Assembly (NCBI RefSeq): GCF_963677195.1
Contig: NZ_OY781918.1
Span: forward strand, 484,923 to 548,922
DNA length: 64,000 nt
Direction: 5' to 3'
Source of the DNA: an uncultured Marinifilum sp.
GTDB lineage: Bacteria; Bacteroidota; Bacteroidia; Bacteroidales; Marinifilaceae
Shown here in pieces: positions 12,349-29,239 of this stretch (position 1 is the stretch's first letter; every line of letters begins with the position of its first letter). Both the position numbers and the translations under genes were made by a program. The notes under the pieces are model-generated. The model was not told the origin of the DNA. It worked only from the letters and a program-made list of their open reading frames with translations, and ran no database searches.

Positions 12349-12554
12349 TCATTCAGTTCTTTACGATTTACCGGAGCCAGTTCATGACCAAACATGCTAA
12401 GTACCAGGTTTACCTTATCCATATTCAGATTAGTTTTCCCTTGCTCAATTTTTCGCAGCACAGTAAGTGCAACACCAGCACGTTCTGCAAATTCCTCCTG
12501 AGTAAGATTAACTTTCTTTCTACGCTCTTTAACAAAGTCTGACAACTGTTTCAT
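12345..12554 (-). CDS. hipB: HipB-like helix-turn-helix repressor
   Basis: A 69-residue Cro/CI-type HTH protein (VNLTQEEFAERAGVALTVLRKIEQGKTNLNMDKVN). The small size and position as first gene of a hipB-hipS-hipT operon identify it as the HipB component, which represses the operon and augments the complex. The end of this gene is duplicated as a scar at 2523-2583. Confidence 0.88.
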   Translation of the reverse strand: MKQLSDFVKERRKKVNLTQEEFAERAGVALTVLRKIEQGKTNLNMDKVNLVLSMFGHELAPVNRKELNE

Positions 12555-12593
12555 TATATGTTTTTAGATATAATACAAAACAAATATAATAAA

Positions 12594-12613
12594 CTATATG
12601 CAATTCGATATAG
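12594..12613. promoter_or_regulatory. Candidate HipB operator
   Basis: Inverted repeat CTATAT and ATATAG with an 8-base spacer, 40-60 bases upstream of hipB. Known HipB operators have 5-base arms around an 8-base spacer. A TATATTTG -7-like box lies at 12581-12588. Confidence 0.45.
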
Positions 12614-12641
12614 ACATAAAAATCAAAGCTATTTTATATGC

Positions 12642-13118
12642 TTAAAGATATAATTCTAATCCAAATTCACTCGCTCTTGACGATATATTTTCTAGTCTCT
12701 CAGTATATTCATCAATGAGTCCTATTTGAGCAATTCCATTAACTGCACTATAGTACATTTTAACCACAGAAACATAATAATTGTCCTCCCAGTAACCAAA
12801 ATCGCTTATGACATCAAGACAACAATCCACATAATGCAATTCGATTTCAATATTTAATTCAATCACATTCATCTTTCGAACCTTCCTAATGAGTTTTCTC
12901 GCTTCGGATTCTTTTAAAACTAAGTTATTTCCACTTGGGTAAACATATTTTTCAATTGCCTTTTTGTATTTCTCTACAAGTTCATCTATGTCACCTGTCG
13001 CATAAATATCCAGAAAGTCTTTTGCAGCAGGAACCTTCTTATACATTTCTGAAATCAACTTCAAAATTTCAGTTTTTTCTAAATTGTTTAATCTTGTTTT
13101 AACTTCTCTAAGTCCCAT
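12642..13118 (-). CDS. DUF6155-like unknown protein
   Basis: About 158 residues from MGLREVKTRLNNLEK to SEFGLELYL, mostly helical. The opening (KTEILKLISEMYKK, then KDFLDIYATGD and ELVEKYKKAIEKYVYP) resembles DUF6155 proteins. The frame extends upstream to 13298; I prefer 13118 because the extension is not family-like, but this is not certain. A GTTGGGGTGC box, the kind that starts a cassette, lies upstream at 13362-13371. Function unknown. Confidence 0.6.
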   Translation of the reverse strand: MGLREVKTRLNNLEKTEILKLISEMYKKVPAAKDFLDIYATGDIDELVEKYKKAIEKYVYPSGNNLVLKESEARKLIRKVRKMNVIELNIEIELHYVDCCLDVISDFGYWEDNYYVSVVKMYYSAVNGIAQIGLIDEYTERLENISSRASEFGLELYL

Positions 13119-13361
13119 TTTAAATTTGAATAGTTTTTCAATCCGATTGGAGAATCCATTTATAGAAGTAATTTTTTCAGCTTCTTGCTTTCTTAAAACT
13201 ATTGATGAATTTTCAAGAACAATAATTATCTCACTAAGAATACCTATCTCATTAAAAATTACTTCCATAAATTGTTGAGTCTTTCCATGGCATAGCAATT
13301 TAATTTTTATCTCAAATTACAACTTAAAAAGTGTAAACGATGTCCCTTTACCATACCAAAT

Positions 13362-13576
13362 GCACCCCAACGTTTTAGTATAAGAAACGTAAGTAGTTTC
13401 GAAATACTTACCTGTCAAGTTACACTGAGCCAAATTTGCGATTAGACACAAATTTATTGTTTTAAAACAACTCGTCAAATCCCAGATTTGACGGAGCTGA
13501 TTAAGTGTGTAAACGATCCATAAACCACTGATCCTCTCATGCTTTTTATACATCATTGGAAGCTGGCGTTAATCAC
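13362..13576 (-). repeat. Degenerate attC-like site
   Basis: On the minus strand it runs from GTGATTAAC at the end of the 179-aa gene to GTTGGGGTGC. Two arms pair over 16 positions with four mismatches or wobbles: the 5' arm at about 13536-13551 (GTATAAAAAGCATGAG) and the 3' arm near 13377-13394. It is 215 bp, longer than the five good sites, and neither box is matched by its own cassette partner. It contains a perfect hairpin CGTCAAAT/ATTTGACG near 13471-13491. Confidence 0.45.
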
Positions 13577-14112
13577 TTTCTTCTTAACTTTATATCCATA
13601 CCCCAAAAATATTCACTGTTTTTTTTAATATCAAAGATGTCAGGATTTTCAGATAAATATATTCCCAATTGCTCCCCATTAAAATCAACATAATCTCCTT
13701 TCATCATTAAATCACAGTATATGTCTGGAACACTGCTAGGTTTTCTCTTTGGTTTTAAAAATTCAGCACATAATTTCAAGGTATCCGAATCAAGTTTTAT
13801 TATTGTAGGTTTTACAATCCAATCATAATCATTCTCAGTTCTGTCCAGCCCTTTTAATGCATCAATAATTTCACATATTCCAAATCCTGACTCATAATTA
13901 TCTTGATAGTAAGGCGTAATAAAATCCAAAGTATCTTCAAATTTATTATTTAAATTGAGAGCTTCTGCAAATCTTTGTTGGGCATATAAATCATCAGGAT
14001 ACTTTTTTGCTCTTTCTTCTCGCAACTTTAATAAATTGGGCCAATCTTCTTTTTCGTAAAGAATCTTATCGTCCTCCCAGCCTTCTAATCCATAAGGGGC
14101 ATCAAAGTCCAT
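13573..14112 (-). CDS. Unknown TPR-like helical protein
   Basis: 179 residues starting MDFDAPYGLEGWEDD. Residues about 25-65 (LLKLREERAKKYPDDLYAQQRFAEALNLNNK...) look like a TPR-type helical pair. No signal peptide, no membrane segment, no catalytic motif. It sits between two small cargo genes in the cassette-rich part of the element and is followed by a degenerate attC-like site that overlaps its stop codon. Confidence 0.6.
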   Translation of the reverse strand: MDFDAPYGLEGWEDDKILYEKEDWPNLLKLREERAKKYPDDLYAQQRFAEALNLNNKFEDTLDFITPYYQDNYESGFGICEIIDALKGLDRTENDYDWIVKPTIIKLDSDTLKLCAEFLKPKRKPSSVPDIYCDLMMKGDYVDFNGEQLGIYLSENPDIFDIKKNSEYFWGMDIKLRRK

Positions 14113-14198
14113 AATCTAAATATCTGTTATTTTTTTATTTATCGTCAAATATACGAATCCGATTATTCATAACTTCCCGCAATCAAATCGCTATATAA

Positions 14199-14252
14199 GC
14201 AAGCCGATTAAATTTGCTTATATTTTTGAATAAACCAGTTTAATTGGCTTGC
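14199..14252. repeat. Inverted repeat in the gap downstream of fic
   Basis: Fourteen-base arms at 14199-14212 (GCAAGCCGATTAAA) and 14239-14252 differ at one position that can pair as G-U. The 14113-14329 gap also holds CCTAAC at the fic side and GTTATGAAT at the other. It may be a decayed cassette site, but neither box matches its cassette partner, so I label it only as an inverted repeat. Confidence 0.5.
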
Positions 14253-14329
14253 TGGTGTTTATTAATTGAACTAATACTCGAGCGACTCGCCACCGCCCAT
14301 GAAATTTAGCTTTTGTTAGGTTTTCGTGT

Positions 14330-15412
14330 TTATTGTTTTAAAATTTCGATTAAGCCCTTATTAATATATAAAGTTTCTCTTCCAACTTTTTGTGATTCAA
14401 TTATTCCTATTTTCTCAAGCTCTTTTAGATATCTTGATGCTGCTTTTCGTTCAACTCTTAGTTTCTTAACAACAAATTCAATTTTAGAATATGGCTGTTC
14501 AAATAACAATTCAACCAATTCCTTTTTATATATTTTGGGAGCTTCTATTTGTACTTTCTGAATTGTGCTATCTAGTTGATTTTTAATTCTTATTATCTTT
14601 TCAATAGTGTCTTTTGAAGTAAATTCTATTGCTTTAAGCATAAATATTATCCATTCTTCCCATTTTCCAGTTCTATTAGTTTGATTTAATAATCTATAGT
14701 ATTCTGGTTTGTTTTCGATAATATATGAACTTAGATACAATATTGGAACATCAATTAAATCGTTAAGAATTAAGTAAATAATATTCAATATCCTGCCAGT
14801 TCTTCCATTACCATCATAGAATGGGTGAATACTTTCAAATTGGTGATGTAGGATTGCTAGATTAATCAACGGTGATAAATCGTTATCAGTTTCATTGTAG
14901 TGTTTAATGAAATTGCTTAATAATTCAATAATTTCCGTTTTATCCTGTGGTGGTGTGTATACAATTTCACCCGTTGTATCATTTTTTAAAACAGTACCAG
15001 GAGTACTTCTAATACCAGCTATATTATCAACTAATTGTTGCTGTATATCTATAATGTCATTGACTTTTAAAAAACCTTGCTGTTTGGCAGTTTCATAACC
15101 ATGAAATATTGCTTTCCGATAATTTACAACTTCTTTAGTTTCATATGAAATTTTAGATTTATTGATTGCTAGAGCCTTGTATAGTTCATCTTGTGTTGTT
15201 ATAATATTTTCAATTTCAGAACTATCCTTTGCTTCTTGAAGTACAATTGCATTAATTAACATAGCTTGATTCGGAATCGTTTTTGCTATACCTTTTAATT
15301 CAGCTAAAGCAGCTGTTGCTTTATTAGTCTGTCTTAATATCTCAATAGTTTCCACTTTTTCTCTTAGAGGTGGAAGTTTTTCTAGAATATATTGTGGTGC
15401 TTTTTGTCCCAT
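14330..15412 (-). CDS. Fic family protein (second)
   Basis: About 360 residues from MGQKAPQYILEKLPPLREK. Catalytic motif HPFYDGNGRTGR, flap region TTGEIVYTPPQ, and an N-terminal inhibitory motif SSEIEN, so a class II Fic protein, predicted AMP-transferase. The C-terminus has a winged-helix segment (IEFVVKKLRVERKAASRYLKELEKIG). The frame extends upstream to 15508 but that part overlaps the IS1182 end and attC-like sequence, so 15412 is preferred. This gene starts the cassette that begins with GTTACCATTC at 15479-15488. Confidence 0.88.
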   Translation of the reverse strand: MGQKAPQYILEKLPPLREKVETIEILRQTNKATAALAELKGIAKTIPNQAMLINAIVLQEAKDSSEIENIITTQDELYKALAINKSKISYETKEVVNYRKAIFHGYETAKQQGFLKVNDIIDIQQQLVDNIAGIRSTPGTVLKNDTTGEIVYTPPQDKTEIIELLSNFIKHYNETDNDLSPLINLAILHHQFESIHPFYDGNGRTGRILNIIYLILNDLIDVPILYLSSYIIENKPEYYRLLNQTNRTGKWEEWIIFMLKAIEFTSKDTIEKIIRIKNQLDSTIQKVQIEAPKIYKKELVELLFEQPYSKIEFVVKKLRVERKAASRYLKELEKIGIIESQKVGRETLYINKGLIEILKQ

Positions 15413-15490
15413 ATGTTTTTTATCTGTACCAAAAATACTAAAAAAAGTACATATGTCAAAAATAAGGTGCTTTTTAGTGAATGGTAACGG

Positions 15491-17151
15491 CAGTTTGTCT
15501 AAAAACACATTAAACTGCCCATTTAAGGTTTAAATATAGCAGTTTTAAGGATACATAAAAATTGAAAAAGTATTTAATTTGAAATTGAATTGAGCTTCTT
15601 ATTTGAGCCAATTTCGACTCTAATGGCATCCTTAATTTAAGAAAACAAGATAATTGCTGTGTTGCCCATTTAATGAGCGTTTTTACGCCAATAATATTGA
15701 TTATTCGACGTAGGTTATAGGCTGTCATAATTAAGCCCACATCAGCACTAGCCCTTTCAATTCCTTTTTTTGTCATAATGTGATTGAAGCCCCATTGCCG
15801 TTTTATGGTTCCATAAGGATGTTCGACTATGGCCTGCCGCCTTTTGTAATAACTTTGATTCTGCTGTACTCTTTGCTTGTTTTTATCAATCAGATCCTGA
15901 TGTTCACTCCGTTGTATCGCTTTTCCACAGATAGCCTTACTACATTGATCTTTTACCTTGCAATTTGCACAAGCTTTGGTGGTGTATCGTTTAAACAGGT
16001 AGGTTCTGGCCTTGTGTAATCTTCCGTTAGTGGTTAGTTTTTTGTTTTGCGGACAAGTATAATAATCCTCGAATTTGTTGTATTTAAAATTCGCAACATT
16101 ATACGCTGGATTTGGAGCTTGTGCGGCGGCTCCAGGTATTGCTACAATTGTTTCAATTCCTAAACGATCTGCAATCTGAAATTCAGATCCAGTATGGTAG
16201 CCTTTATCGTATAGTGCTGTGAACTGGTTGGTTCGTAAAATCGATTTTGCACGTTGCAGCATGTTGCCCATTGCTTTACTATCGTTATGCATTGTAAGTT
16301 TGTAGTCGATAGGGATGTTGTGCTCTGCATCTACAGTTGTTTGCAGGTTGTAGGCTACTTCAGTAATGTTGTTTCTAATTGTCATTTGGCGGCTATCAGG
16401 ATCCGAAGTAGAAATTTGCGGCTGGCCTGTATGTTTGATTTGCTTCTCTATATTTTGATACTCCTTTTTTCGATCCGTCTGCTTTTTTATTTCCTGCTGA
16501 ATACTCTTTTTTTGATCTCCATCACTTTCGGCTAAAGCTTTTTCATACTCGGAAAGTTTTCTGTCAATATAAGCGATGTGACGGTCAATTTTCTTTTGGT
16601 TGAAGTTGTTTTTTTTACTATTCTGAGCTCTGAGTTTAGTGCCGTCACCAGCTAACAATTTGCCACCAATCAGATTAAAGTGTTTGGCCATTTTAACGGT
16701 CTGTCGGAATACCTTTTTAATTGCTTTGGGGTTGTCTCTTCTAAAGTTGGAGATGGTATTGTGATCGGGACACAAGTTCCTTAGTAACCACATCACTTCT
16801 ATATTTCGTTTACACTCTTTCTCTAAGCCGCGAGAAGAACGGGTTCTATTTAAATAACCATAAATATAGAGCTTGAGTAAATCTGCTGGTCGGTAGGCTG
16901 GTCTACCGTTTTCTCCAAAATCAACTTTAAAACCAAAGTCATTCAAATCAAGGCTATCCACAAATAAATCGATTAATCGAACCTCATTGTCTTTAGCAAT
17001 TGATTGGTCTAATGAGATGGGAAAAAGATGAGTTTGTGTTCTGTCTTGTCCTTGTATAAATCTCATACTATAAGATAACAAAGTGCTGAAAATCTATCAA
17101 ATACAAGCATGCTTACTTATCAACAACTTATCAAGGTTTTTAGACAGTCTG
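15491..17151 (-). mobile_element. IS1182-family insertion sequence
   Basis: Terminal inverted repeats of 16 bases (CAGTTTGTCTAAAAAC at the left, CAGACTGTCTAAAAAC reading in from the right) match at 14 positions. The target ACGG is duplicated at 15487-15490 and 17152-17155. Insertion is within a few bases of the GTT box of attC-like site S5. One intact transposase gene. Confidence 0.85.
15510..17066 (-). CDS. IS1182-family transposase
   Basis: DDE transposase of about 518 residues with the DUF772-type N-terminal domain (DLFVDSLDL ... NGRPAYRPADLLKLYIYGYLNRTRSSRGLEKEC), catalytic pieces LAGDGTKLRAQ and ALYDKGYHTGSEF, a Cys-rich segment (CANCKVKDQC), and VEHPYGTIKRQWGFNHIMTKKG near the C-terminus. 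It appears full length. Start MRFIQGQDR at 17066 is preferred over a start five codons upstream. Confidence 0.9.
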   Translation of the reverse strand: MRFIQGQDRTQTHLFPISLDQSIAKDNEVRLIDLFVDSLDLNDFGFKVDFGENGRPAYRPADLLKLYIYGYLNRTRSSRGLEKECKRNIEVMWLLRNLCPDHNTISNFRRDNPKAIKKVFRQTVKMAKHFNLIGGKLLAGDGTKLRAQNSKKNNFNQKKIDRHIAYIDRKLSEYEKALAESDGDQKKSIQQEIKKQTDRKKEYQNIEKQIKHTGQPQISTSDPDSRQMTIRNNITEVAYNLQTTVDAEHNIPIDYKLTMHNDSKAMGNMLQRAKSILRTNQFTALYDKGYHTGSEFQIADRLGIETIVAIPGAAAQAPNPAYNVANFKYNKFEDYYTCPQNKKLTTNGRLHKARTYLFKRYTTKACANCKVKDQCSKAICGKAIQRSEHQDLIDKNKQRVQQNQSYYKRRQAIVEHPYGTIKRQWGFNHIMTKKGIERASADVGLIMTAYNLRRIINIIGVKTLIKWATQQLSCFLKLRMPLESKLAQIRSSIQFQIKYFFNFYVSLKLLYLNLKWAV

Positions 17152-17290
17152 ACGGTTTGTGTAAGAGTAGTAGCCGCTTTCAGGACTCCAACTTATCGAC
17201 CCGTTATTTAGTTTTAGTAAATGTATTAATTCCTGCATTAGCACAATCCGGCTATTACTTTTACATTTTGTTGGGGCATCGTGCTTTTTA

Positions 17291-17653
17291 TCATTTTTTG
17301 CTCCAAATTACAAATCTAGCATTATCAGCACTCCCCATTGCTTTTATAAACTCATCAAAATTGAAATTCTCATATTTCGAGACTATTTCATATATATCAT
17401 CAAATCTAGGAGCCCCTTGAGGTATTGAACAACCATTATCATTTCCTATAAGCATAAGCCAGACATCTGGTAGAAAAGGTCCTTCGTCTGTAGTTTGGAT
17501 TGCTATCTCAATGATATCAGTCCAGTCTATTTGTTCTCTCTCTCGCTCAGGGTGCTCAACTCGTAGATAATCATTTGTGATAGTGATATCAAAATAATCC
17601 TCGGGCTGTTTTTTCCTGATTTTGCTTTTGAACAGTTTCTTAAATATATTCAT
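17291..17653 (-). CDS. Small unknown protein, second gene of cassette E
   Basis: 120 residues, basic N-terminus then IDWTDIIEIAIQTTDEGPFLPDVWLMLIG and SIPQGAPRFDDIYEI ... FIKAMGSADNARFVIWSKK. The pattern (W-x-DI-x-EI-x-I-x-TTDEGP, then GC-x-IP) recurs in small bacterial proteins often found near toxins, but I cannot name the family. No signal peptide. It directly follows a lipoprotein gene and its stop is 12 bases before the AAC box of site S5, as expected for a cassette gene. Confidence 0.65.
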   Translation of the reverse strand: MNIFKKLFKSKIRKKQPEDYFDITITNDYLRVEHPEREREQIDWTDIIEIAIQTTDEGPFLPDVWLMLIGNDNGCSIPQGAPRFDDIYEIVSKYENFNFDEFIKAMGSADNARFVIWSKK

Positions 17654-17669
17654 ACTGATACTTATCGAA

Positions 17670-18101
17670 TCATTTCGTTTTTTCCCAATAATCGAAAGCT
17701 GTTTCCCTAAATGAATTTAATCTTAGCGAATCTCCATCAACGTAGAGGTTAAATTGAGAACCATCTCGTTTTTTTATAGTGAGATATGAAGCACGAGTCC
17801 ATGATTGTGACTTATCAACAGCCACAATATCTATTATATCTGAATAATAAGCGAATTTCTTAAAAGATTTAGTCGTATCACTATCAATCCAATAAGAAAC
17901 AAGTCTCTTATCTGTTATAAAATTGCCCTCAGACTTTAGAAATGATGTTGAGGAAATTCGAACAATCTCTTCTCCATTGTCTAATAAATCTAATCCAGTT
18001 ATATATTGAATATCTGAATCAGATAAGCTTTCTCTATCCAGAAAAGAGCAAGAAATCATTATTAGTATAACAGAACAGAAAGCAATAAATCTTTGCATCA
18101 T
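17670..18101 (-). CDS. Small lipoprotein, first gene of cassette E
   Basis: About 143 residues with a lipoprotein signal peptide MMQRFIAFCSVILIMISC; the rest (DSDIQYITGLDLLDNGEEI ... LTIKKRDGSQFNLYVDGDSLRLNSF) is beta-rich. Family unknown. The frame can start at 18152, but that start lies inside the attC-like site S4, so 18101 is preferred. It pairs with the 120-aa gene in one cassette running from GTTGGGGCA (18141-18133) to TGCCCCAAC (17278-17270). Confidence 0.65.
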   Translation of the reverse strand: MMQRFIAFCSVILIMISCSFLDRESLSDSDIQYITGLDLLDNGEEIVRISSTSFLKSEGNFITDKRLVSYWIDSDTTKSFKKFAYYSDIIDIVAVDKSQSWTRASYLTIKKRDGSQFNLYVDGDSLRLNSFRETAFDYWEKTK

Positions 18102-18131
18102 AGGATAATTTTTTGCAGTGAGTCTTGGCAT

Positions 18132-18270
18132 GTGCCCCAACGTTAAGTGCATGAAGCGGAGCAGGTTTCAAAGCTTTTTCATCGTCCATACACAACGTTT
18201 TTTTACCAAATGTAACAAAATTTGATTATCGCACCAAAACTGCTATGCTTTATTGCACATTGTTATATTT
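18132..18270 (-). repeat. attC-like site S4 (intact)
   Basis: 139 bp. On the minus strand: AAATATAAC (18270-18262), arm TGCAATAAAGCATAGCAG, central region, arm CTGCTCCGCTTCATGCA, spacer, GTTGGGGCAC (18141-18132). Arms pair as TGCA, AAGC and AGCAG blocks with small bulges. AAATATAAC is the exact reverse complement of the GTTATATTT that begins the same cassette. Confidence 0.85.
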
Positions 18271-18669
18271 TGTAGCTTTTCGCTCGAGTCTAGCCTATTT
18301 TACAGGGCGTTGGCCAAAATAAAATTGCTTTAGTATCTCTTGGCTGTTTTCTTGATCGCCAAATGAGAAATAACGTCCTGATAGCAGCGATCGTTTGGTA
18401 AACTTCCAAAAAGCAGAAATGATGCTTTTCAAATCAGGCCTAAAGCAATTTTTGTGCGTCCGGGTAAAATATAAGGTCGGGAGTGGCAGAAATCAAAGCT
18501 ATGGCAGCGACGAACATTTTATGCTTCTTCTTCCCGTTTTTAGCAATCCAAAATGAATATAAATTTTAGCAATCTTCATTTTATCTGGCTGGGATTTTTA
18601 GTTGAAAATCTTCTGGCTAAAAACATTTTTTTCAAAAAAATATGCGAGTTGCAGGCTATTAAATATAAC
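18262..18669 (-). other. Cassette D, without an evident gene
   Basis: A 408-bp unit running on the minus strand from GTTATATTT (18669-18661) to AAATATAAC (18270-18262). Between the boxes I find no frame above about 26 codons in the cassette direction. It could be a promoter or RNA cassette, or a decayed gene. It contains two related GCAGCGA motifs and several runs of A/T. Confidence 0.7.
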
Positions 18670-18820
18670 GTTTAGTATATGCAAAGTAGGCGATTGCGGG
18701 CCTCAAACCTATCAAACCGTTACCGTTTTGAAGCGGGCTACAACCATTGAATTTACTACTATTTCGCCTATTTTGTATATACATCCTAAGTTTACAAATT
18801 ATTATCTTAAAGAATTAACT

Positions 18821-18976
18821 AAAGAACGAAAGAATGGAGCAAGGTTATTTTATACATTGGGTATTCAAACTCGTCAACAATGAAGATCCCCACTCTTTCA
18901 CTACTTGAATACGATTAGTTCTCTGGGCCATTAGAGCCTGTTTTTAGGTTGCTATATCAAAGTAGCTTCGTTCTTT
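18821..18976 (+). ncRNA. Candidate bridge RNA, IS110 copy 1
   Basis: The non-coding left end (209 bases) is longer than the right end (about 90). A perfect 10-bp outer stem AAAGAACGAA/TTCGTTCTTT joins 18821-18830 to 18967-18976. Inside are an 8-bp stem GTATTCAA/TTGAATAC (18861-18868 with 18905-18912) holding a 36-base loop, and smaller stems CTCT/AGAG, CCT/AGG and GCTA/TAGC. IS110 elements are known to encode a structured bridge RNA in the leader; which loop would bind target or donor is not determined. Confidence 0.55.
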
Positions 18977-18991
18977 AATAAATCTTTTACT

Positions 18992-19960
18992 ATGAATAAA
19001 AATACACATTTTATCGGAATCGACATTTCCAAAAAAGTATTTGATGTATGGAGTACCAAATTTGGGCACAAACAGTTTAAAAACACTCCTGAAGGATTTG
19101 CTGAATTACTTCTATTACTTTCCCCACAAAGCTGGTGTGTAATGGAATATACTGGCAATTATTATTATCAGCTTGCGGTGTTCTTATTTGAAAACAGTGT
19201 TCGGGTTTCGGTTATAAACCCATTGGTTATTAAACGATTTATACAAATGAAACTACAACATAACAAAACTGATAAAAGCGATGCCAAAATGATCGTGATG
19301 TATGCACAGGAACAAAGTCTGAACTTATGGAAACCCCTACCGGGATTCATTGATAAATGTAAGGATCTGCATACAACAATCAATTTGTACCACAAACAAA
19401 GTACGGCGTTAAAGAACAAATTGCACGGCTTTATCGACAAAGGCATTAAAGGAAGGGTCGTAACATCGTTAAAACGTCAGATCCGTCAAGTAAAATCCGA
19501 AATTCTATTGCTTGAAAAAGAAATCGAAGCGATAATCAAAGAACATGAACAGGAGCTATTGTCCAACCTCACATCGATCCCAGGAATAGGTAAGAAAACC
19601 GCTATCATACTGATTGTTTCTACCAATGGATTTAGAACTTTCGAAAATGCCAAGCAGCTATCGGCTTTCTTTGGACTTTCCCCAGTTATTACTTCGTCAG
19701 GTACAAGTATCAGGGGAAAAGCAAGAATATCTAAAAAAGGAAATCCAATAGTACGTAACCATTTATTTATGTGCAGCTTTACAGCATGTACCAAAAACAT
19801 GCAATGCAAGGCCCTTTTCGATCGGCTAGTGGACAAAGGGAAATCTAAGAAGCTAGCGTTGATTGCCGTTACAAATAAACTCCTTTCTCAATCTTTGGCG
19901 ATTGCCAAATCTGGAGTGAGATACCATCCGGATTATAGATCTACTCTAAGAATGAAATAA
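18992..19960 (+). CDS. IS110-family transposase, copy 1
   Basis: 322 residues. N-terminal RuvC-like DEDD domain: FIGIDISKKVFDVW (first Asp), WCVMEYTGNYYYQLA (Glu), KTDKSDAKMIVMYA (two Asp). C-terminal Transposase_20 domain: SIPGIGKKTAIILI and a serine-rich segment PVITSSGTSIRGKARISKKGN that includes the catalytic serine. Complete and identical to the product of copy 2, which implies recent duplication. Confidence 0.93.
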   Translation: MNKNTHFIGIDISKKVFDVWSTKFGHKQFKNTPEGFAELLLLLSPQSWCVMEYTGNYYYQLAVFLFENSVRVSVINPLVIKRFIQMKLQHNKTDKSDAKMIVMYAQEQSLNLWKPLPGFIDKCKDLHTTINLYHKQSTALKNKLHGFIDKGIKGRVVTSLKRQIRQVKSEILLLEKEIEAIIKEHEQELLSNLTSIPGIGKKTAIILIVSTNGFRTFENAKQLSAFFGLSPVITSSGTSIRGKARISKKGNPIVRNHLFMCSFTACTKNMQCKALFDRLVDKGKSKKLALIAVTNKLLSQSLAIAKSGVRYHPDYRSTLRMK

Positions 19961-20075
19961 TTTTTCTTTTCGAATCTGCCTCCCTAAAATAAAAGGTAGT
20001 TCGTAAAGAAAAATTATGGCAAAATAACTAGGTTTTTACCTTAGTTCTTTGTTATGCCTTGTTTTTCCTTATCAA

Positions 20076-20528
20076 TCAGTTAATTATCACAGTATTTAAC
20101 AAAGTCAAATCATACTTTTCTCCTTCGTCAATCAAATCCCCACAAATCTCCAAATCAGACATGTTTTCGAGTCTATTTTCGTCTGTTTTACTCAAAAAAG
20201 TTGCAATCATCTTGCGAGTCTTGCCATTCAAGTCAATCTGTGTCGAGATATATTTATGTCCACCACCAGCTCCTGTCGATTTTATATCATATTTGGCTAT
20301 ACATACTTTAAAGTCAATCGCTTTTAGCATATCCTGATTTATTATATACAATGTATCTCCTGATTCATTTTCATAAATCCAGTTTTTGAGCTTTAAAGAT
20401 TCTAAATGGTTATCAAAATCAGATTCGTTATCAAACAATTCTCCAAGTTTGTCACGAATATCAATATAGTAGGATTGGTAGTCCTTAGATTTTAAAAAAT
20501 CAACGATATGTTTTTCTTTGTCAGTCAT
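20076..20528 (-). CDS. Unknown protein, second gene of cassette C
   Basis: 150 residues starting MTDKEKHIVDFLKSKDYQSYYIDI. No signal peptide or membrane segment; a glycine-rich loop STGAGGGHKYIST is the most distinctive piece. Family not recognised. It starts three bases after the stop of the 79-aa gene, so the two form one operon inside a cassette bounded by GTTATGCC (20801-20794) and GGCATAAC (20058-20051). Confidence 0.65.
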   Translation of the reverse strand: MTDKEKHIVDFLKSKDYQSYYIDIRDKLGELFDNESDFDNHLESLKLKNWIYENESGDTLYIINQDMLKAIDFKVCIAKYDIKSTGAGGGHKYISTQIDLNGKTRKMIATFLSKTDENRLENMSDLEICGDLIDEGEKYDLTLLNTVIIN

Positions 20529-20530
20529 TT

Positions 20531-20770
20531 TTAATCTTGAAAATCCCTTCCAATCTTTTCGTTAAATATTTCGATACTTTTTTCTATCAAATCAAGAGGT
20601 ACATCCACTTTTTCGGAAAAGAACTCAATTTGTCTTTTTGAATCATTTCTAAATATCTCGACAATCATAGAATTTGAAGACTTTTCCCAAATCTCAAGAC
20701 CAATCCCATCGCGAATTACATCACTTGCAATAATCAATTCATATTCTTTTTTATCGATTGTCAATTTCAT
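20531..20770 (-). CDS. Unknown protein, first gene of cassette C
   Basis: 79 residues starting MKLTIDKKEYELIIASDVIRDG. Short alpha/beta protein rich in Ile and Glu, no export signal. It begins 24 bases after the GTT box of the cassette, which is a typical integron layout. Partner of the 150-aa gene. Function unknown; a small two-gene unit like this could be a toxin-immunity or toxin-antitoxin pair, but nothing in the sequence proves it. Confidence 0.6.
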   Translation of the reverse strand: MKLTIDKKEYELIIASDVIRDGIGLEIWEKSSNSMIVEIFRNDSKRQIEFFSEKVDVPLDLIEKSIEIFNEKIGRDFQD

Positions 20771-20952
20771 TTTGTAGGTCTCTCATTAAATAAGGCATAA
20801 CGGCTCGCATAAGAATATGTAGCCGACTGCGGTGCAGAAACTCTCAAACTACAAGACAGTTGAAGCGGGCCAAAACCCCTTAATTTACTGCTATTTCGGC
20901 TATTATTTTTATGCATCCTAAGTTTACAAATTATTATCTTAAAGAATTAACT

Positions 20953-21108
20953 AAAGAACGAAAGAATGGAGCAAGGTTATTTTATACATTGGGTATTCAA
21001 ACTCGTCAACAATGAAGATCCCCACTCTTTCACTACTTGAATACGATTAGTTCTCTGGGCCATTAGAGCCTGTTTTTAGGTTGCTATATCAAAGTAGCTT
21101 CGTTCTTT
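20953..21108 (+). ncRNA. Candidate bridge RNA, IS110 copy 2
   Basis: Same sequence and folding as 18821-18976, shifted by 2132 bases. Identity of the leader in both copies fits identical targeting of two sites that share the attC-like core. Confidence 0.55.
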
Positions 21109-21123
21109 AATAAATCTTTTACT

Positions 21124-22092
21124 ATGAATAAAAATACACATTTTATCGGAATCGACATTTCCAAAAAAGTATTTGATGTATGGAGTACCAAATTTGGGCA
21201 CAAACAGTTTAAAAACACTCCTGAAGGATTTGCTGAATTACTTCTATTACTTTCCCCACAAAGCTGGTGTGTAATGGAATATACTGGCAATTATTATTAT
21301 CAGCTTGCGGTGTTCTTATTTGAAAACAGTGTTCGGGTTTCGGTTATAAACCCATTGGTTATTAAACGATTTATACAAATGAAACTACAACATAACAAAA
21401 CTGATAAAAGCGATGCCAAAATGATCGTGATGTATGCACAGGAACAAAGTCTGAACTTATGGAAACCCCTACCGGGATTCATTGATAAATGTAAGGATCT
21501 GCATACAACAATCAATTTGTACCACAAACAAAGTACGGCGTTAAAGAACAAATTGCACGGCTTTATCGACAAAGGCATTAAAGGAAGGGTCGTAACATCG
21601 TTAAAACGTCAGATCCGTCAAGTAAAATCCGAAATTCTATTGCTTGAAAAAGAAATCGAAGCGATAATCAAAGAACATGAACAGGAGCTATTGTCCAACC
21701 TCACATCGATCCCAGGAATAGGTAAGAAAACCGCTATCATACTGATTGTTTCTACCAATGGATTTAGAACTTTCGAAAATGCCAAGCAGCTATCGGCTTT
21801 CTTTGGACTTTCCCCAGTTATTACTTCGTCAGGTACAAGTATCAGGGGAAAAGCAAGAATATCTAAAAAAGGAAATCCAATAGTACGTAACCATTTATTT
21901 ATGTGCAGCTTTACAGCATGTACCAAAAACATGCAATGCAAGGCCCTTTTCGATCGGCTAGTGGACAAAGGGAAATCTAAGAAGCTAGCGTTGATTGCCG
22001 TTACAAATAAACTCCTTTCTCAATCTTTGGCGATTGCCAAATCTGGAGTGAGATACCATCCGGATTATAGATCTACTCTAAGAATGAAATAA
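21124..22092 (+). CDS. IS110-family transposase, copy 2
   Basis: 322 residues, identical to the copy 1 product, complete DEDD and Transposase_20 domains. It reads against the cassette genes (plus strand, cassettes on minus). Confidence 0.93.
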   Translation: MNKNTHFIGIDISKKVFDVWSTKFGHKQFKNTPEGFAELLLLLSPQSWCVMEYTGNYYYQLAVFLFENSVRVSVINPLVIKRFIQMKLQHNKTDKSDAKMIVMYAQEQSLNLWKPLPGFIDKCKDLHTTINLYHKQSTALKNKLHGFIDKGIKGRVVTSLKRQIRQVKSEILLLEKEIEAIIKEHEQELLSNLTSIPGIGKKTAIILIVSTNGFRTFENAKQLSAFFGLSPVITSSGTSIRGKARISKKGNPIVRNHLFMCSFTACTKNMQCKALFDRLVDKGKSKKLALIAVTNKLLSQSLAIAKSGVRYHPDYRSTLRMK

Positions 22093-22193
22093 TTTTTCTT
22101 TTCGAATCTGCCTCCCTAAAATAAAAGGTAGTTCGTAAAGAAAAATTATGGCAAAATAACTAGGTTTTTACCTTAGTTCTTTGTTACCACCTG

Positions 22194-23063
22194 TTATTTC
22201 TCCCATTCTTTATAAAATCCCATCCGAATATATTCTTTGTCTCTATCGTTGACAGGTTTTCCCTTAAATTCTGCAAATATATCAATCGAATCTTCTAGGG
22301 TATTCACACCAATTTCAAAACAAGCACGCCCCCATTTGTATAATGCTATACTACCTAGCGTAGTAAATAGTCCTGGTTTAATTTGAACACCGTTATATTC
22401 TTTCCCTTCAATTTCAGTAAAGAAGTCAAGCTTTCCACCTTTCTTTGTTTCTGAAATGATATATGACTTAATTTCATTCTTTGAAGGTAGCATAATATCA
22501 GAAGGCTTCTTCTTATCTAATTTCTCCTTTTTGATTAAAGTCCAAACAGCTTTTTCAATATCTGAGTTATAAATTATACTTAGTTCTTTACCATTAAAAT
22601 TCAATTTACCATTTTTAATAAATGCCGTTGTATCATATTTTTCAGCGATTATCTCATTTGCTCTATTTTCGGTAATGTCCCCTGATAAATTACATGGAAA
22701 TAGTGTTTGTTTATTGGTCTTCATTACTACAGACATAAACTCTCTTTTAGGGTCATTTTGTAACATTACCATAACCACCATTTTACTTTCTTTCGTGAGA
22801 ATGAAAAAATCAGAGGCAAGATTAACTGCAGCTGATTCAATTTGGTCTAAAGTTGGTTTTTCTGATATATAAACCGAAGATAGTTTGTTCTCAATATTAT
22901 TACTGAGAGTATAATAATTACCTATAAGCAGAAATTTATCAATTGATTTTTCACTAATAGAAACTGAATTAAAAACTGGATTCCCATTTTTGTCAGTCTG
23001 TCCATAAATGTTCCCCATTGAAAGGATTGCTAAAATTACAATTGCTATTTTTTTCATTGTCAT
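22194..23063 (-). CDS. Unknown secreted protein, cassette B
   Basis: 289 residues with a signal peptide (MKKIAIVILAILSMGNIYGQ; cleavage expected after YGQ). The mature part has no family I recognise: mixed alpha/beta, with NDPKREFMSVVMKTNKQTLFPCNLSGDI and a C-terminal ALYKWGRACFEIGVNTLEDSIDIFAEFKGK. The start may be at 23063 or the ATG two codons later. It is the only gene of the cassette that begins GTTACCACC at 23102-23094 and ends GGTGGTAAC at 22191-22183; the stop codon lies three bases from the end box. Confidence 0.7.
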   Translation of the reverse strand: MTMKKIAIVILAILSMGNIYGQTDKNGNPVFNSVSISEKSIDKFLLIGNYYTLSNNIENKLSSVYISEKPTLDQIESAAVNLASDFFILTKESKMVVMVMLQNDPKREFMSVVMKTNKQTLFPCNLSGDITENRANEIIAEKYDTTAFIKNGKLNFNGKELSIIYNSDIEKAVWTLIKKEKLDKKKPSDIMLPSKNEIKSYIISETKKGGKLDFFTEIEGKEYNGVQIKPGLFTTLGSIALYKWGRACFEIGVNTLEDSIDIFAEFKGKPVNDRDKEYIRMGFYKEWEK

Positions 23064-23093
23064 TCTTTAATATTATCGAATTTTGTTATAATT

Positions 23094-23228
23094 GGTGGTA
23101 ACGGTTTGTATATGAAAAGTAGCGGGTTTTGAAGAACTAACTTTTCAGAAAGCAAGATACCTAATTAAATACAAAAACGGTTCAGGTAGTTACCTAAACC
23201 GCTATTTTTTATATACGTTGTTGTACCC
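23094..23228 (-). repeat. attC-like site S1 (intact)
   Basis: 135 bp. On the minus strand: GGGTACAAC (23228-23220) then AAC, arm GTATATAAAAAATAGCGG, a central hairpin region, arm CCGCTACTTTTCATATAC, 5-base spacer AAACC, GTTACCACC (23102-23094). Arms pair over GTATAT, AAAA and TAGCGG blocks with single mismatches. It directly follows the DoxX-like gene (stop at 23231). Confidence 0.87.
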
Positions 23229-23230
23229 AG

Positions 23231-23647
23231 TTATTTTTTTACTTTTCGATTCAAATAGAAGTTAATTGAAATTAGAATTAAGTAAAAAATGGCTAAATAT
23301 GGTGGTTTAGATTCCATTGGTAAAATTTCAGCAGGAACATCTGGGTGTAAATGGACATAAATTGCAACCACCATCATAATTGCAACGGTCAAATTACTTA
23401 AATAAAATAATTTTCTTTTTATAGAATCGTCTAATTTATCTCCCTTAATTACTAAAAATAATAGTGCAAGTCCAACACCAACTTCACCAAATTTTACAAA
23501 ATATTGCATTATTTCTGGGAAAGGCATTTCAGTAATCGATACTTGTCTGTAAATCCAAGTTTTAAATGGTTCAAAAAACTTGGCTATCCCAGGTATTAAC
23601 ATCCCAAATCCTAATAATCCTGTTATGATTTTAACTGACTTTTTCAT
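23231..23647 (-). CDS. DoxX-like small membrane protein
   Basis: 138 residues, four predicted membrane segments (IITGLLGFGMLIPGIAKFF; EVGVGLALLFLVI; LTVAIMMVVAIYVHL; YLAIFYLILISINFYL). The size and topology resemble DoxX/SURF4-type membrane proteins. Last gene of a four-gene run with a TetR fragment, a peroxiredoxin-like protein and an SDR enzyme, spaced by 2 to 55 bases, so an operon with a redox theme is likely. Its stop is two bases from attC-like site S1. Confidence 0.6.
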   Translation of the reverse strand: MKKSVKIITGLLGFGMLIPGIAKFFEPFKTWIYRQVSITEMPFPEIMQYFVKFGEVGVGLALLFLVIKGDKLDDSIKRKLFYLSNLTVAIMMVVAIYVHLHPDVPAEILPMESKPPYLAIFYLILISINFYLNRKVKK

Positions 23648-23652
23648 TGTTT

Positions 23653-24459
23653 TTATATTTTTTTATTTGAAATTGCTTTTCTAATCATCCAACCATTCAT
23701 TTTACTAAACCCCTTAATAGAGAAAATTCTTTTAGCCATAAAGACCATTATTTTGTTCATAAATCCGGGAATTATTGTTCCTTTTTTACCGAGATTTTTT
23801 AATGAAATTTTGGCAACTTCAGAAGGTTGCATACTTGACATAGGTAGTTTTGACCAGTCAATTCCATTATCAGCAACCATATTCGTTTCGGTTAAACCCG
23901 GTGCGAGAACACTAATATCGACATTATTAACCTTAAGCTCAGGGTATAAGGATAGCCCCAAATTGTGAACATAAGATTTGGTTGCAGCATAATTACTGAA
24001 ATATGGTGTTCCCATTAAACCAGCCATACTTGATATTAATAAAATACCTCCTTTTTTAACTGCTGACATTTTTTTTGCGAAATGATTAGTCAGTAAATAG
24101 GTTGAAGTGACATTCAGTTTAATCATTTGTAATTCTTTTTCTTCTGTAATTTTAAGAAAACTACCGTTGTTTTCCATTCCTGCACAATGAACAAGCATTC
24201 CAATTTCCTGTGTATCAATATCTTTAAAAAAGTCTATGATAGCTTGTTCGTTTGATAAATCAACAGAATAAGTTTGAGGCACAATATTGTATTTATTTGT
24301 AATTTCCTCTGCAATGGTTTTTAATTTCTCTTTGTTTCTTGCAACTATAATTGGTTCTATTCCAAGTTCTGCAAGTTCTAAAGCAAATGCTTTTCCAATT
24401 CCTGATGAGCCACCAGTTACTAATGCTTTATTACCATATTTGCTTTTTAAGTTTTTCAT
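23653..24459 (-). CDS. SDR-family NAD(P)-dependent oxidoreductase
   Basis: 268-residue classical short-chain dehydrogenase. Cofactor motif TGGSSGIGKAFA near the N-terminus, NAG-equivalent VHCAGMENNG, catalytic Ser in LLISSMAGLMG, and YAATKSY giving the Tyr-x-x-x-Lys pair, then LAPGLTETNM. Substrate cannot be read from sequence. It starts two bases after the stop of the peroxiredoxin-like gene. Confidence 0.88.
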   Translation of the reverse strand: MKNLKSKYGNKALVTGGSSGIGKAFALELAELGIEPIIVARNKEKLKTIAEEITNKYNIVPQTYSVDLSNEQAIIDFFKDIDTQEIGMLVHCAGMENNGSFLKITEEKELQMIKLNVTSTYLLTNHFAKKMSAVKKGGILLISSMAGLMGTPYFSNYAATKSYVHNLGLSLYPELKVNNVDISVLAPGLTETNMVADNGIDWSKLPMSSMQPSEVAKISLKNLGKKGTIIPGFMNKIMVFMAKRIFSIKGFSKMNGWMIRKAISNKKI

Positions 24460-24461
24460 TT

Positions 24462-25130
24462 TTATTTCTTTTTAAATAGATTGTTTTTTAATGATGTTAA
24501 TTCTTTTAGGATATCTGCAGGTTCTGCTCTAAAAGTATAGTCTGCTTTGGCAAAAGTAAAGAGTACAGTATTATCACTATCAACAATAAATGTTGCAGCT
24601 AATGGTACTTCAAATTGACCGATACCATTATGTTTTTCAATTTCAATACCAAACGCTTTATAAATTGGCCTGATTTCCTCACTTATGGTAAATGTGATTC
24701 CTAACTGTTTCGCATATTCAGACTTATCATCAGTCAGTACTTCAAATTCTAAATTGTGTCTTTCTGAAGTTGTTAGGGATTCATCGGGGTTTTCAGGTGT
24801 AATTGCTACAAGATTTGCTCCTAGTGCTTTGATTTCAGGAAGAATATCTTGATAAGCACGTAATTCTAGATTGCAATATGGACACCATCCACCACGATAG
24901 AAGGTAATTACAACTGGTCCTTTAGCTCTTAAAGTGGATAGATTTACATTAGTACCCAAATGGTTAGTTAAATTAAAGTCTAATAATTTATCTCCTTTTT
25001 TAGGAATTCTTTTTACAATTCCAGAGCCTTCTAGTATTTCTAAATCTTCTAATACTTTAAGTCTTACTTCACTTGGAAGTTTTGACAGGTTTTCTTTTTT
25101 TAAGGCTGTTAATTTTTCTTGTAATTTCAT
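24462..25130 (-). CDS. Peroxiredoxin-like AhpC/TSA protein
   Basis: 222-residue thioredoxin-fold protein: VVITFYRGGWCPYCNLELRAYQDILPEIKALGA carries the CxxC active site (WCPYC), and the domain order fits the AhpC/TSA family members that have a long N-terminal helix (about 35 residues). Probably reduces peroxides or acts as a thiol-disulfide reductase in the cytosol. Operon with the SDR and DoxX-like genes. Confidence 0.85.
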   Translation of the reverse strand: MKLQEKLTALKKENLSKLPSEVRLKVLEDLEILEGSGIVKRIPKKGDKLLDFNLTNHLGTNVNLSTLRAKGPVVITFYRGGWCPYCNLELRAYQDILPEIKALGANLVAITPENPDESLTTSERHNLEFEVLTDDKSEYAKQLGITFTISEEIRPIYKAFGIEIEKHNGIGQFEVPLAATFIVDSDNTVLFTFAKADYTFRAEPADILKELTSLKNNLFKKK

Positions 25131-25183
25131 AATTATTGTTGTTTTAAACTAAACAGTCATTTAGTTATTGATTAAAAAAAATG

Positions 25184-25660
25184 TTATAGTTGTTTGAAAA
25201 TGTTTTCTATATAATTAGCTAGTTGTTTTTGATTAAAAATCCTTGATGCAGAAGAAAGACCAACCATTGAAATGATTAGATAATCTCCTAATTCCTGAAT
25301 TTCTGATGCTACTTTGATGTTTTCTTGTTCTAAATTTTTTATAAATAGCTGTCTAACGTCTGTACTGAATTTTACTATTTGGGCGAGTATATTTGGGTCT
25401 GCATCTTTATCAACTTCATTTGCAGTATTAGTAATTAAACAACCTTTGGATAAATCATTTTCTTTCGAGAAATCAATAAAATTATAGAAGTATTCTTTTA
25501 TTCCAATAATTCCGTTGTTTGAGTTCTGTAATTTATGAGTGATTGTATTTAAACGTTTTCTATATAATTTCATACTCTCAACAAATAAACCATCCTTACT
25601 GCCAAAACTTGAATAAATGGAAAACTTATTTATTCCCATTTCCTTCTCAAGCAATTGCAT
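25184..25660 (-). pseudogene. TetR-family regulator, 5'-truncated
   Basis: The frame begins MQLLEKEMGINKFSIYSSFGSKDGLFVESMKLYRKRL, the second half of a TetR HTH, and continues with a helical ligand domain. The first HTH helices are missing: read in frame upstream, ETTS fits the family but TGA and TAG stops follow within 15 codons. The product of 158 residues is too short to bind DNA normally. The truncation point lies between the cassette recombinase and the operon, at the head of the array, and the expected start box of this cassette (GTTGTACCC) is also absent, so the cassette's front end was probably lost in a rearrangement. Confidence 0.7.
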
Positions 25661-25756
25661 AGAGGTAGTTTCATTTCAGTAACCCTACCTATGGTCTCAA
25701 TATATCCATTTTAGTGAAAGTTACTGTTTAATATTAACCCGAAAATAATGATTATT

Positions 25757-27202
25757 TTACAATATAATATCATCTAATGGACTTTTTATCTGACGTAAAT
25801 TTTTATTACTAACATGTGTGTAAATTTCAGTAGTTTTCGAAGAATTATGTCCTAATATTACTTGAATATAACGCAAATCGGTACCCGATTCCAATAAATG
25901 AGTGGCAAAACTATGACGTAAAGAATGAAGGCCTCCTCGTTTTGGAACCTTAGATTTTGCAATAGCATTAGCAAGTATTTTTCCTGCACTGCAAGCAGAA
26001 TATTTCCCTCCAAACTGTCCTTCAAACAAGTAATTCTTTGGTTTGTATTCTTTATAATAATCCCTAAGTGTATTTAATGTTACCTCACCTAAAATAGTCG
26101 ATCTGTCCTTTTTCCCTTTAGCCTTACAAATATTTATTAACATCCTTTTCGAATCAACATGCTCTATTTTAAGATTCAGTGCTTCACCTATTCTTAATCC
26201 ACTGCCATATACCAAATACAATAAAGCTTTGTGTTTTAAATTCGTAACAGAATTCAAAATTTTCTGAATTTCTTCTTTATTCCAAACCTTAGGTAACTTA
26301 CGTCCAAGTTTAGGTCTTATTACCTGATCTAGTTCAACTTGCTTCCCTAAAACACTGCTATAATAACGTTTTATAGCATTTATCGATTGATTTATTGTTT
26401 GTTCACTGCACGACTTTTCAGCAATCATATTCTGATGATATGCATTGATTACTTCTGAAGTAAATTCATTTATTTTACTAATTTGATCTTGTTTATAGGT
26501 ATTAATAAAACGTAATAAAAAATAATAATACGTCGTAATCGTGTTTACACTATAGCCTTTAAGAACCATGTATTGCAGATATTCTTTCGGACAACTTTTA
26601 AAATGCGACCCCTTAACATAAGCTTGTTCAAATAAAATTTGCATTATTCTATAATCTCTTATCTCTAATTCGTTGTGCAATTTTACCCGTAACTGATGGC
26701 TTACAGTATTTAAAAATAAGGCAATCACTTTTACTTTAGGATCAATCACAAATAGCTTTAAACTCCTATCCCATCTGGCATTTTTATTCTCAACTAATAT
26801 TTTATTAATACTACAACTGTTGTTATATTTTATAACAATGCATCGCTTTCCATCATTTTTATATGGTACTAGTGTGATATTGCCAATTTTCGGTGCCGAT
26901 TCCAAAACTCCTTTAAAATAGGTAGCACTCCCTATTGTAATAGATTCGGTATTGCTAATTAAATTTGCTTCAAAATATTTTGTGCTTATTACTGCGATAT
27001 CACAAAAAAGATCTTTCAATAAACCAATTGTTTTTGCTGTACTTTTTACTTTATATTCCTTATGCTCCACACTCCATACAATCCAACTGTTTCTAGCAAT
27101 TCGTGATACAATAGCATCATTGCTCTTAAAATAAAGAATCGAAATATCCTCATTACTATTTTTTACGTGATTTAAATAAATGACAGGCCTGTTTTGTTTC
27201 AT
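25757..27202 (-). CDS. Tyrosine recombinase at the head of the cassette array
   Basis: 481 residues. Core-binding SAM-like domain at about 205-290 (EYLQYMVLKGYSVNTITTYYYFLLRF), catalytic domain about 300-475 with R337 (GSGLRIGE), K363/K365 (AKGKKDR), H426 and R429 (HSLRHSFATHLL), H452 (LGHNSSKTT) and Y461 (EIYTHV). The C-terminus IKSPLDD resembles the RSPLD end of integron integrases, but the extra helix typical of IntI between boxes I and II is absent. Residues 1-200 are an unusual extension, apparently two copies of a small alpha/beta module (around 18-75 and 115-175). It is transcribed toward the array. A role in moving the cassettes is inferred from position. Confidence 0.85.
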   Translation of the reverse strand: MKQNRPVIYLNHVKNSNEDISILYFKSNDAIVSRIARNSWIVWSVEHKEYKVKSTAKTIGLLKDLFCDIAVISTKYFEANLISNTESITIGSATYFKGVLESAPKIGNITLVPYKNDGKRCIVIKYNNSCSINKILVENKNARWDRSLKLFVIDPKVKVIALFLNTVSHQLRVKLHNELEIRDYRIMQILFEQAYVKGSHFKSCPKEYLQYMVLKGYSVNTITTYYYFLLRFINTYKQDQISKINEFTSEVINAYHQNMIAEKSCSEQTINQSINAIKRYYSSVLGKQVELDQVIRPKLGRKLPKVWNKEEIQKILNSVTNLKHKALLYLVYGSGLRIGEALNLKIEHVDSKRMLINICKAKGKKDRSTILGEVTLNTLRDYYKEYKPKNYLFEGQFGGKYSACSAGKILANAIAKSKVPKRGGLHSLRHSFATHLLESGTDLRYIQVILGHNSSKTTEIYTHVSNKNLRQIKSPLDDIIL

Positions 27203-27240
27203 TTTTTTTACTGGAAATATAAATTGAATTCTTATCTTAA

Positions 27241-27290: not shown

Positions 27291-27304
27291 TAAAGTTTTA
27301 AACC

Positions 27305-29238: not shown

Positions 29239-29239
29239 A

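What the first reader, a model, noticed from the sequence alone, without database searches (positions are those of the whole stretch)
15479..23228. Integron-like cassette array in a Bacteroidota element
Seen directly: five sites (S1 23094-23228, S2 20794-22191, S3 18661-20058, S4 18132-18270, S5 15479-17278), each an imperfect inverted repeat of 130-139 bp once insertions are removed, with an AAC box at the 5' end and a GTT box at the 3' end on the minus strand, and usually a 5-base spacer before GTT. For every cassette with both ends present, the start box is the reverse complement of its own end box: GTTACCACC/GGTGGTAAC, GTTATGCC/GGCATAAC, GTTATATTT/AAATATAAC, GTTGGGGCA/TGCCCCAAC. In integrons this follows from folding and recombining a circular cassette at attC. 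Four independent matches of 8-9 bases are very unlikely by chance. All cassette genes point the same way, begin close to a start box, and are small unknown genes. I know of no well-described integron of this type in Bacteroidota; the novelty claim is inference.
Basis: partly seen in the sequence, partly recalled or inferred. Interest (0 to 1): 0.93.

Follow-up and report, generated by a model that had tools for sequence, protein, structure and literature searches.

The report
Bacteroidia integron without the integron helix
This bacterium carries two arrays of gene cassettes, each beside a recombinase gene that lacks an insert found in all the standard integron integrases we compared; that recombinase likely captures and shuffles the cassettes, and similar recombinase genes and sites occur in about half of the related genomes sampled.

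Summary
S1-S5 are attC-type sites: 10 of 19 stem pairs change on both sides, and all four cassettes between them have complementary end boxes. A model of the sites found a second, about 55-kb array in the same chromosome, just downstream of a 79%-identical integrase paralogue. There 30 of 34 cassettes keep complementary boxes (0 of 20,000 shuffles as good) and three cassettes are duplicated GTT to GTT. The same element in a related genome has other cassettes between attI and the last site. The likely integrase, 25757-27202, lies outside the stated interval. Its family lacks about 42 residues present in canonical IntI, the region of the I2 helix. In 395 genomes of the class: 1 with canonical IntI, 200 with this family; among printed rows 20 of 20 nearby sites lie downstream on the integrase strand. 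No recombination was tested. Common origin with IntI is not excluded (AU p 0.095 and 0.104). Verdict: an integron by anatomy, with a non-IntI integrase; new variant of a known kind.

The parts
25757..27202 (-). tyrosine recombinase, 481 aa, proposed cassette integrase; SAM-like plus catalytic domain (about 207-472) and a 200-aa N-terminal extension
   Evidence: Pfam PF00589, PF13495; TIGR02249 185.8 bits, below cut-off 265, genome match broken between model positions 178 and 245; best PDB fold match 2A3V, IntI4
25675..25726 (-). attI-like site: CAGTAAC ... GTTACTG inverted repeat just after the integrase stop
   Evidence: shared with the chromosomal paralogue and with G008; blastn identity to G008 ends one base past it. 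Such a repeat is not general in the family
23094..23228 (-). S1, attC-type site
22183..23102 (-). cassette C1, boxes GTTACCACC/GGTGGTAAC; gene 22194-23063 (289 aa, no Pfam match)
20794..22191 (-). S2, attC-type site interrupted by an IS110-family element (about 20915-22182)
20051..20801 (-). cassette C2, boxes GTTATGCC/GGCATAAC; genes 20531-20770 and 20076-20528 (no Pfam match)
18661..20058 (-). S3, attC-type site interrupted by an identical IS110-family element (about 18783-20050)
18262..18669 (-). cassette C3, boxes GTTATATTT/AAATATAAC; no ORF of 60 aa
18132..18270 (-). S4, attC-type site
17270..18140 (-). cassette C4, boxes GTTGGGGCA/TGCCCCAAC; genes 17670-18101 and 17291-17653 (no Pfam match)
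15479..17278 (-). S5, attC-type site interrupted by an IS1182-family element
14330..15415 (-). Fic/SoFic-like gene after S5; its end box does not match its start box
13363..13563 (-). weak terminal attC-type site, 25.9 bits; sequence beyond it is conserved in G008
7543..31536 (.). host element: 24 kb between 24-bp repeats 7543-7566 and 31513-31536 at tRNA-Leu, with a MobB-like relaxase 28348-29238 and its own tyrosine recombinase 30033-31238

Best explanation
It is an integron-type cassette platform: gene cassettes separated by attC-type sites lie beside a tyrosine recombinase (25757-27202) that lacks the IntI insertion and that likely inserts and excises the cassettes at G^TT. Shown: the sites, their covarying stems, boxes complementary within a cassette but not within a site, cassettes duplicated GTT to GTT, a different array between the same flanks in a related genome, and the integrase gene upstream of the array on the same strand. 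Inferred: an excised circular cassette pairs its own two 9-nt boxes into a complete hairpin; the bottom strand is the substrate; the integrase joins it to attI; replication resolves the product. Which part of the protein reads the hairpin in place of the I2 helix is unknown; the N-terminal domain is the candidate.
For: Covariation among the five sites: 10 of 19 pairs, score 0.537 vs 0.173 shuffled. On 50 distinct matches: 94.3% of cells paired vs 61.8%, score 0.691 vs 0.140, 0 of 500 shuffles (alignment fitted to the model). Two conserved A.C mismatches, 47 and 50 of 51 matches. Boxes: 30 of 34 cassettes with a run of 5 or more beyond GTT, versus 36 of 1122 non-cognate pairs; mean 5.62 of 6 vs 2.11 non-cognate and 2.41 within site; 0 of 20,000 permutations. 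Other loci: 14 of 20. Duplicated cassettes: 16 of 527, 1 of 881 and 0 of 772 mismatches, flanks unrelated; a fourth present three times at 99.8-100%. Array difference in G008. In 32 cassettes of up to 3.2 kb, 35 ORFs on the array strand, 1 opposite. Association: 141 genomes with both family and site, Fisher p 5e-14; 20 of 20 printed sites within 30 kb downstream, same strand. At E up to 0.01: 34 of 35 in 80 loci, 16 of 16 in 13 regions. Own genome: no TIGR02249 match over the cut-off.
Against: No recombination has been seen; circles, ssDNA use and strand choice are untested. The integrase lacks a domain reported as necessary for IntI activity. The first stretch (TetR to DoxX) and the Fic stretch break the box rule. 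In one search two of five measures are not exceptional: pairs changed on both sides 15 vs 13.1 shuffled (25 of 500 as high), further pair types 42 vs 38.8 (68 of 500). An attI-type inverted repeat was found in 3 of 27 family loci, two of them the window integrase and its paralogue; about 1 expected from shuffles. 59 of 200 family genomes have no site hit and 64 of 205 site genomes no family hit. Weaker matches (E 0.04-0.94): one downstream on the integrase strand, three on the opposite strand. The last box differs between window and G008 while the bases after it agree, which a crossover fixed at G^TT does not explain.
Confidence: 0.87

Rival explanations
1. A canonical integron whose integrase merely lost the I2 insertion: the family and IntI share one integron ancestor.
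For: Best fold match is V. cholerae IntI4, 2A3V, E 2e-14. A tree with family and IntI held together is not rejected, AU p 0.095 and 0.104. Two weak R1 matches lie downstream of canonical IntI on its strand in sister classes (L175, L170).
Against: IntI is one clade at 100/99 without the family; 21 of 22 family rows are another at 97/91; six Patescibacteria, archaeal and Firmicutes rows group with IntI at 93/91, not starred. All 31 family rows have 89-94 residues in the span where IntI has 131, none between.
Confidence: 0.3
2. The sites are recombined as ordinary double-stranded sites by a Xer-like recombinase, without folded single strands.
For: The integrase has Xer-like spacing and no I2; Xer enzymes act on dsDNA (established knowledge). 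Solved XerA-type sequences score slightly above IntI4, 195.5 and 177.6 vs 176.1 bits.
Against: Pairing kept by changes on both sides, boxes complementary within cassettes and not within sites, mismatches fixed in position: expected of a folded strand, not of duplex sites.
Confidence: 0.1
3. The sites are transcription terminators or a REP-like repeat with no role in recombination.
For: They are intergenic hairpins, and IS110/IS1111 elements can target such repeats (PMC11187229, passages).
Against: Box rule, cassette copies, different array between the same flanks, and fixed side and strand relative to one recombinase family. No Rfam family matched them at the gathering score.
Confidence: 0.02

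Closest known systems
Chromosomal integrons with an IntI integrase (V. cholerae superintegron, recalled)
   Same: attC-type hairpins, GTT boundary, cassettes in one orientation, attI-like site beside the integrase gene, long array with many genes of unknown function
   Different: integrase lacks the I2-containing insertion and has an N-terminal extension; box is GTTR plus five free bases rather than GTTRRRY (recalled); integrase reads towards the array on the same strand, unlike most IntI integrons (recalled)
Integrons reported in Bacteroidota (PMC9024848, PMC9668308, PMC8618304; passages only)
   Same: integrons in the same broad phylum; two of the papers list Bacteroidota among phyla with integrons without detail
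   Different: PMC9024848 names complete integrons in Chlorobi, Ignavibacteriae and Salinibacter ruber M1; here the class of the window genome, with another integrase
XerA / Xer recombinases
   Same: closest solved sequences (4A8E, 5HXY) and Xer-like catalytic spacing
   Different: Xer acts at dif sites without cassette arrays (established knowledge)
IS1111/IS110 elements that target attC (PMC11187229, passages only)
   Same: 4 of 5 genomic copies of the IS110-family element sit at one point of an attC-type site
   Different: a resident of the sites, not the cassette system; the fifth copy lies in another sequence

Membership tests
Integron (cassette platform) | array of attC-type sites, structure conserved more than sequence | tested here: met
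Integron (cassette platform) | cassette start box complementary to its own end box | tested here: met
   4 of 4 between S1 and S5, not for the two flanking stretches; 30 of 34 in the second array
Integron (cassette platform) | cassettes move as units | tested here: met
   copies GTT to GTT with unrelated flanks; different array in G008; movement itself not observed
Integron (cassette platform) | site-specific integrase gene beside the array | tested here: met
Integron (cassette platform) | attI site | tested here: inconclusive
   conserved in three related loci; not general, 3 of 27
Integron (cassette platform) | recombination of a folded single strand by the integrase | not testable with these tools
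   only a predicted stability bias of the bottom strand, 32 of 36 stems, 29 of 36 whole sites
Integron (cassette platform) | promoter Pc driving the first cassettes | not tested
   not looked for
IntI integron integrase | I2-containing additional domain between catalytic R and HxxR | tested here: not met
   89-94 residues in 31 family rows vs 131 in 17 IntI rows and 2 more IntI-like rows
IntI integron integrase | TIGR02249 score over the curated cut-off | tested here: not met
   185.8 bits vs 265; genome search 0 over the cut-off
IntI integron integrase | inside the IntI clade | tested here: not met
   IntI clade 100/99 without it; sister relation open, AU p 0.104
Tyrosine recombinase | catalytic R, K, H-R, H, Y | tested here: met
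   R337, K362, H426, R429, H452, Y461 invariant in 70 rows; their roles are recalled
HARP / XPB damage-recognition / MutS mismatch fold (N-terminal domain) | shared fold | tested here: inconclusive

The most novel reading that the evidence does not exclude
Folded-strand cassette recombination arose twice: the class Bacteroidia has its own integron type, in which a Xer-like recombinase reads attC hairpins and their conserved mismatches through a repeated N-terminal domain akin to mismatch- and fork-reading domains, with no I2 helix.
Probability: 0.33. Interest if true: 0.96.

Novelty: new variant of a known kind. Interest (0 to 1): 0.9.

Why it matters
PMC7790495 (passages seen) says that I2 and single-strand recombination are found only in integron integrases and takes the gain of I2 as the step that made them possible. 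A cassette platform whose integrase family has no I2 makes that directly testable. A survey that selected integrases by the additional domain or patch, as PMC2426708 did (passage), would leave this family out. About half of the 395 sampled genomes of the class carry a family member (200) and 205 carry a site match, so a large pool of mobile genes may be uncounted; how many family members run arrays is not known.

Tried and rejected
Viral contigs: no relative of the 289-aa cassette protein. Rfam: no attC-type hit at the gathering score. A second covariance model from 84 matches was not built, its calibration forecast being too long; R1 was kept, so distant sites may be missed. The 395-genome scans scored only a few candidates per genome: 8 for sites, 4 for the family, 5 for TIGR02249; the own-genome site scan scored 150 of 1440. 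attI-type repeat elsewhere: 3 of 27, about 1 expected. A strict model-free site finder gave 24 sites on the array strand, 1 on the other, 0 in three shuffles, but found one of the two R1 sites in G008, and following the boxes in G008 stopped after the first interval of 6.7 kb. The N-terminal domain has no Pfam match and no confident fold match. PADLOC: one weak match among seven chromosomal cassette proteins, SoFic for two window Fic proteins, none for the 289-aa protein. Counts of the R-to-H span by a text pattern missed many rows and were replaced by an alignment count. Tree rows were picked by hand from 159 cores: 85 in the first tree, 58 in the second; cores of 330 residues or more were dropped. 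could use only the printed rows (148 integrases; 142 sites, own genome left out); 5 further sites lay on an integrase contig beyond 30 kb. In one search one further pair had no box located.

Literature: ten searches of an open-licence library, eight of them on this question; no title or abstract start listed an integron type with a non-IntI integrase in this class. Subscription papers and preprints are not held. PMC8138268 (section 7 read) says the insertion is not fully conserved in its integron-like subgroup, so relatives may have been pooled there.
Full report
What is there. Window 15479-23228 holds five sites on the minus strand. Read 5' to 3' on that strand each has a box ending AAC, a 3-base spacer, an arm of about 18 bases, a variable middle, the complementary arm, a 5-base spacer and a box beginning GTT. 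Ten of the 19 pairs change on both sides among the five sites, and 97.9% of 95 cells pair. S2 and S3 carry one and the same IS110-family element at the same point, S5 an IS1182-family element. The four cassettes between S1 and S5 have start and end boxes that are reverse complements. The stretch before S1 and the Fic stretch after S5 do not.

A second array in the same chromosome. R1, built from the five sites, found 35 places in it at E up to 1, the five included, and 51 matches in the window and the fetched regions, among them S1 read on the other strand and two sites seen twice in overlapping stretches. Most lie on one strand between 3105528 and 3160589. Just upstream, at 3102191-3103633 on that strand, is a 79%-identical copy of the window integrase. 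In that array 34 cassettes had both boxes located: 30 have a run of five or more matching bases beyond GTT; the mean is 5.62 of 6 against 2.11 for non-cognate pairs and 2.41 for the two boxes of one site; none of 20,000 permutations reached the sum. Three of the four failures were intervals of 2.5-2.9 kb. One missed site turned up in a model-free scan and three by following the boxes from attI. With these four, 41 sites are listed and 38 of 39 cassettes match at 5 or 6 of 6, a count that is partly circular.

Movement. Three cassettes occur twice, alike from GTT to GTT but for 16 of 527, 1 of 881 and 0 of 772 bases, with unrelated flanks. A fourth, 852-854 bp from box to box, occurs three times at 99.8-100%. 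G008, of the same family by the tool's kinship, has a 97%-identical integrase. Its contig length equals that of the Labilibaculum MAG protein, so it is probably that genome, and the class is then Bacteroidia (inference). Its flanks match the window at 90-96%; identity stops at window 25674, one base past the attI-like site, and resumes at 13350, beyond the last site. The 12.3 kb and 7.5 kb between gave no window match at E up to 1e-8; against the second array only three pieces of 121-185 bases matched there, at the places of G008's two sites.

The integrase. ORF 25757-27202 is a tyrosine recombinase of 481 aa whose catalytic residues are invariant in 70 aligned relatives. It scores 185.8 bits with the NCBIfam integron integrase model, below the cut-off of 265; the match breaks between model positions 178 and 245. 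On an alignment the span from catalytic R to HxxR is 89-94 residues in 31 family rows and 131 in 17 canonical IntI rows. That the missing part holds the I2 helix rests on papers and recall; the gap itself is from the calls. The own genome has no TIGR02249 match over the cut-off. AlphaFold2 gives mean pLDDT 87.7; the best PDB match is IntI4 of V. cholerae, 2A3V. The first 200 residues are predicted as two beta-beta-alpha-beta-beta-alpha units, pLDDT 90.8; many other family frames are shorter at the N-terminus. Weak matches to MutS-beta, the SMARCAL1 HARP domain and XPB are a lead, not a result.

Spread. Among 395 genomes of the class, canonical IntI over the cut-off: 1. Among 395 of the phylum: 105, of which only one is listed in the same class. 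The family at E up to 1e-50: 200 of 395. R1 matches at E up to 0.001: 205 of 395. Both 141, family only 59, site only 64, neither 131; Fisher p 5e-14, not corrected for kinship. Among printed rows with a site within 30 kb of an integrase, 20 of 20 sites are downstream on the integrase strand. In 80 loci of the genome scan, 34 of 35 matches at E up to 0.01 are downstream on the same strand, in 12 loci including Algibacter, Seonamhaeicola, Flavobacterium, Winogradskyella, Algoriphagus and Alkalitalea; the exception is a Calditrichia locus. Of four weaker matches, three are on the opposite strand. In 13 fetched regions, 16 of 16 at E up to 0.01, in seven of them. Boxes in five such loci: 14 of 20.

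Strand. Two stem positions are A opposite C in 47 and 50 of 51 matches; on the other strand they are T opposite G. The bottom strand is predicted more stable in 32 of 36 stems and 29 of 36 whole sites, the strand that canonical integrons use (recalled). In the array the two boxes of one site come from two cassettes and share little beyond AAC/GTT; in an excised circle the two boxes of one cassette would pair over nine bases. So circles would fold better than integrated sites. This is inference.

Origin. IntI is a clade at 100/99; 21 of 22 family rows form another at 97/91; holding both together costs 25 log units but is not rejected (AU p 0.104; 0.095 in the quick tree). The family is not inside IntI in this sample; a shared integron ancestor stays open.

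Setting. The window array rides on a 24-kb element between 24-bp repeats at tRNA-Leu, with a MobB-like relaxase and its own tyrosine recombinase.

Verdict. An integron by anatomy and comparison, with an integrase that fails the defining tests of IntI. It works like an integron (confidence 0.87, recombination untested); it is not an IntI integron as defined.

Noticed in passing
window 18783-20050 and 20915-22182; genome C1:3150265-3151533, 3159199-3160467, 817469-818737: Four of five copies of one IS110-family element sit at the same point of an attC-type site; the fifth lies in another sequence with similar bases at the junction. It looks like an attC-targeting IS110 element.
   Followed up: partly
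window 7543-31536: tRNA-Leu-integrated mobilizable element with 24-bp repeats, MobB-like relaxase and a second tyrosine recombinase; it carries the integron between its ends.
   Followed up: partly
window 14291-14319: The minus strand matches 29 bases of the first half of a chromosomal-array site (3116597) exactly, right after the Fic gene; possible decayed site.
   Followed up: no
window 13363-13371 and L155 around 16815: The 9-base box at the last site differs between window and G008 although the bases after it (CATTTGGTATGGTAAAGG) agree; a crossover fixed at G^TT does not explain this.
   Followed up: no
genome C1:1318515-1325713 and 3733402-3735584: Three and two further R1 matches away from both integrases: small clusters without a family integrase beside them.
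   Followed up: no
L175, L170: Canonical IntI loci of sister classes give weak R1 matches downstream on the integrase strand (28.9 and 19.8 bits), so this layout may also occur with canonical IntI.
   Followed up: no
L049:11639-12961, L050:12533-14095: Chromosomal cassettes include a beta-lactamase-family protein (PF00144) and a family 20 glycoside hydrolase; of ten cassette proteins scanned, four had no Pfam match and three only domains of unknown function.
   Followed up: no
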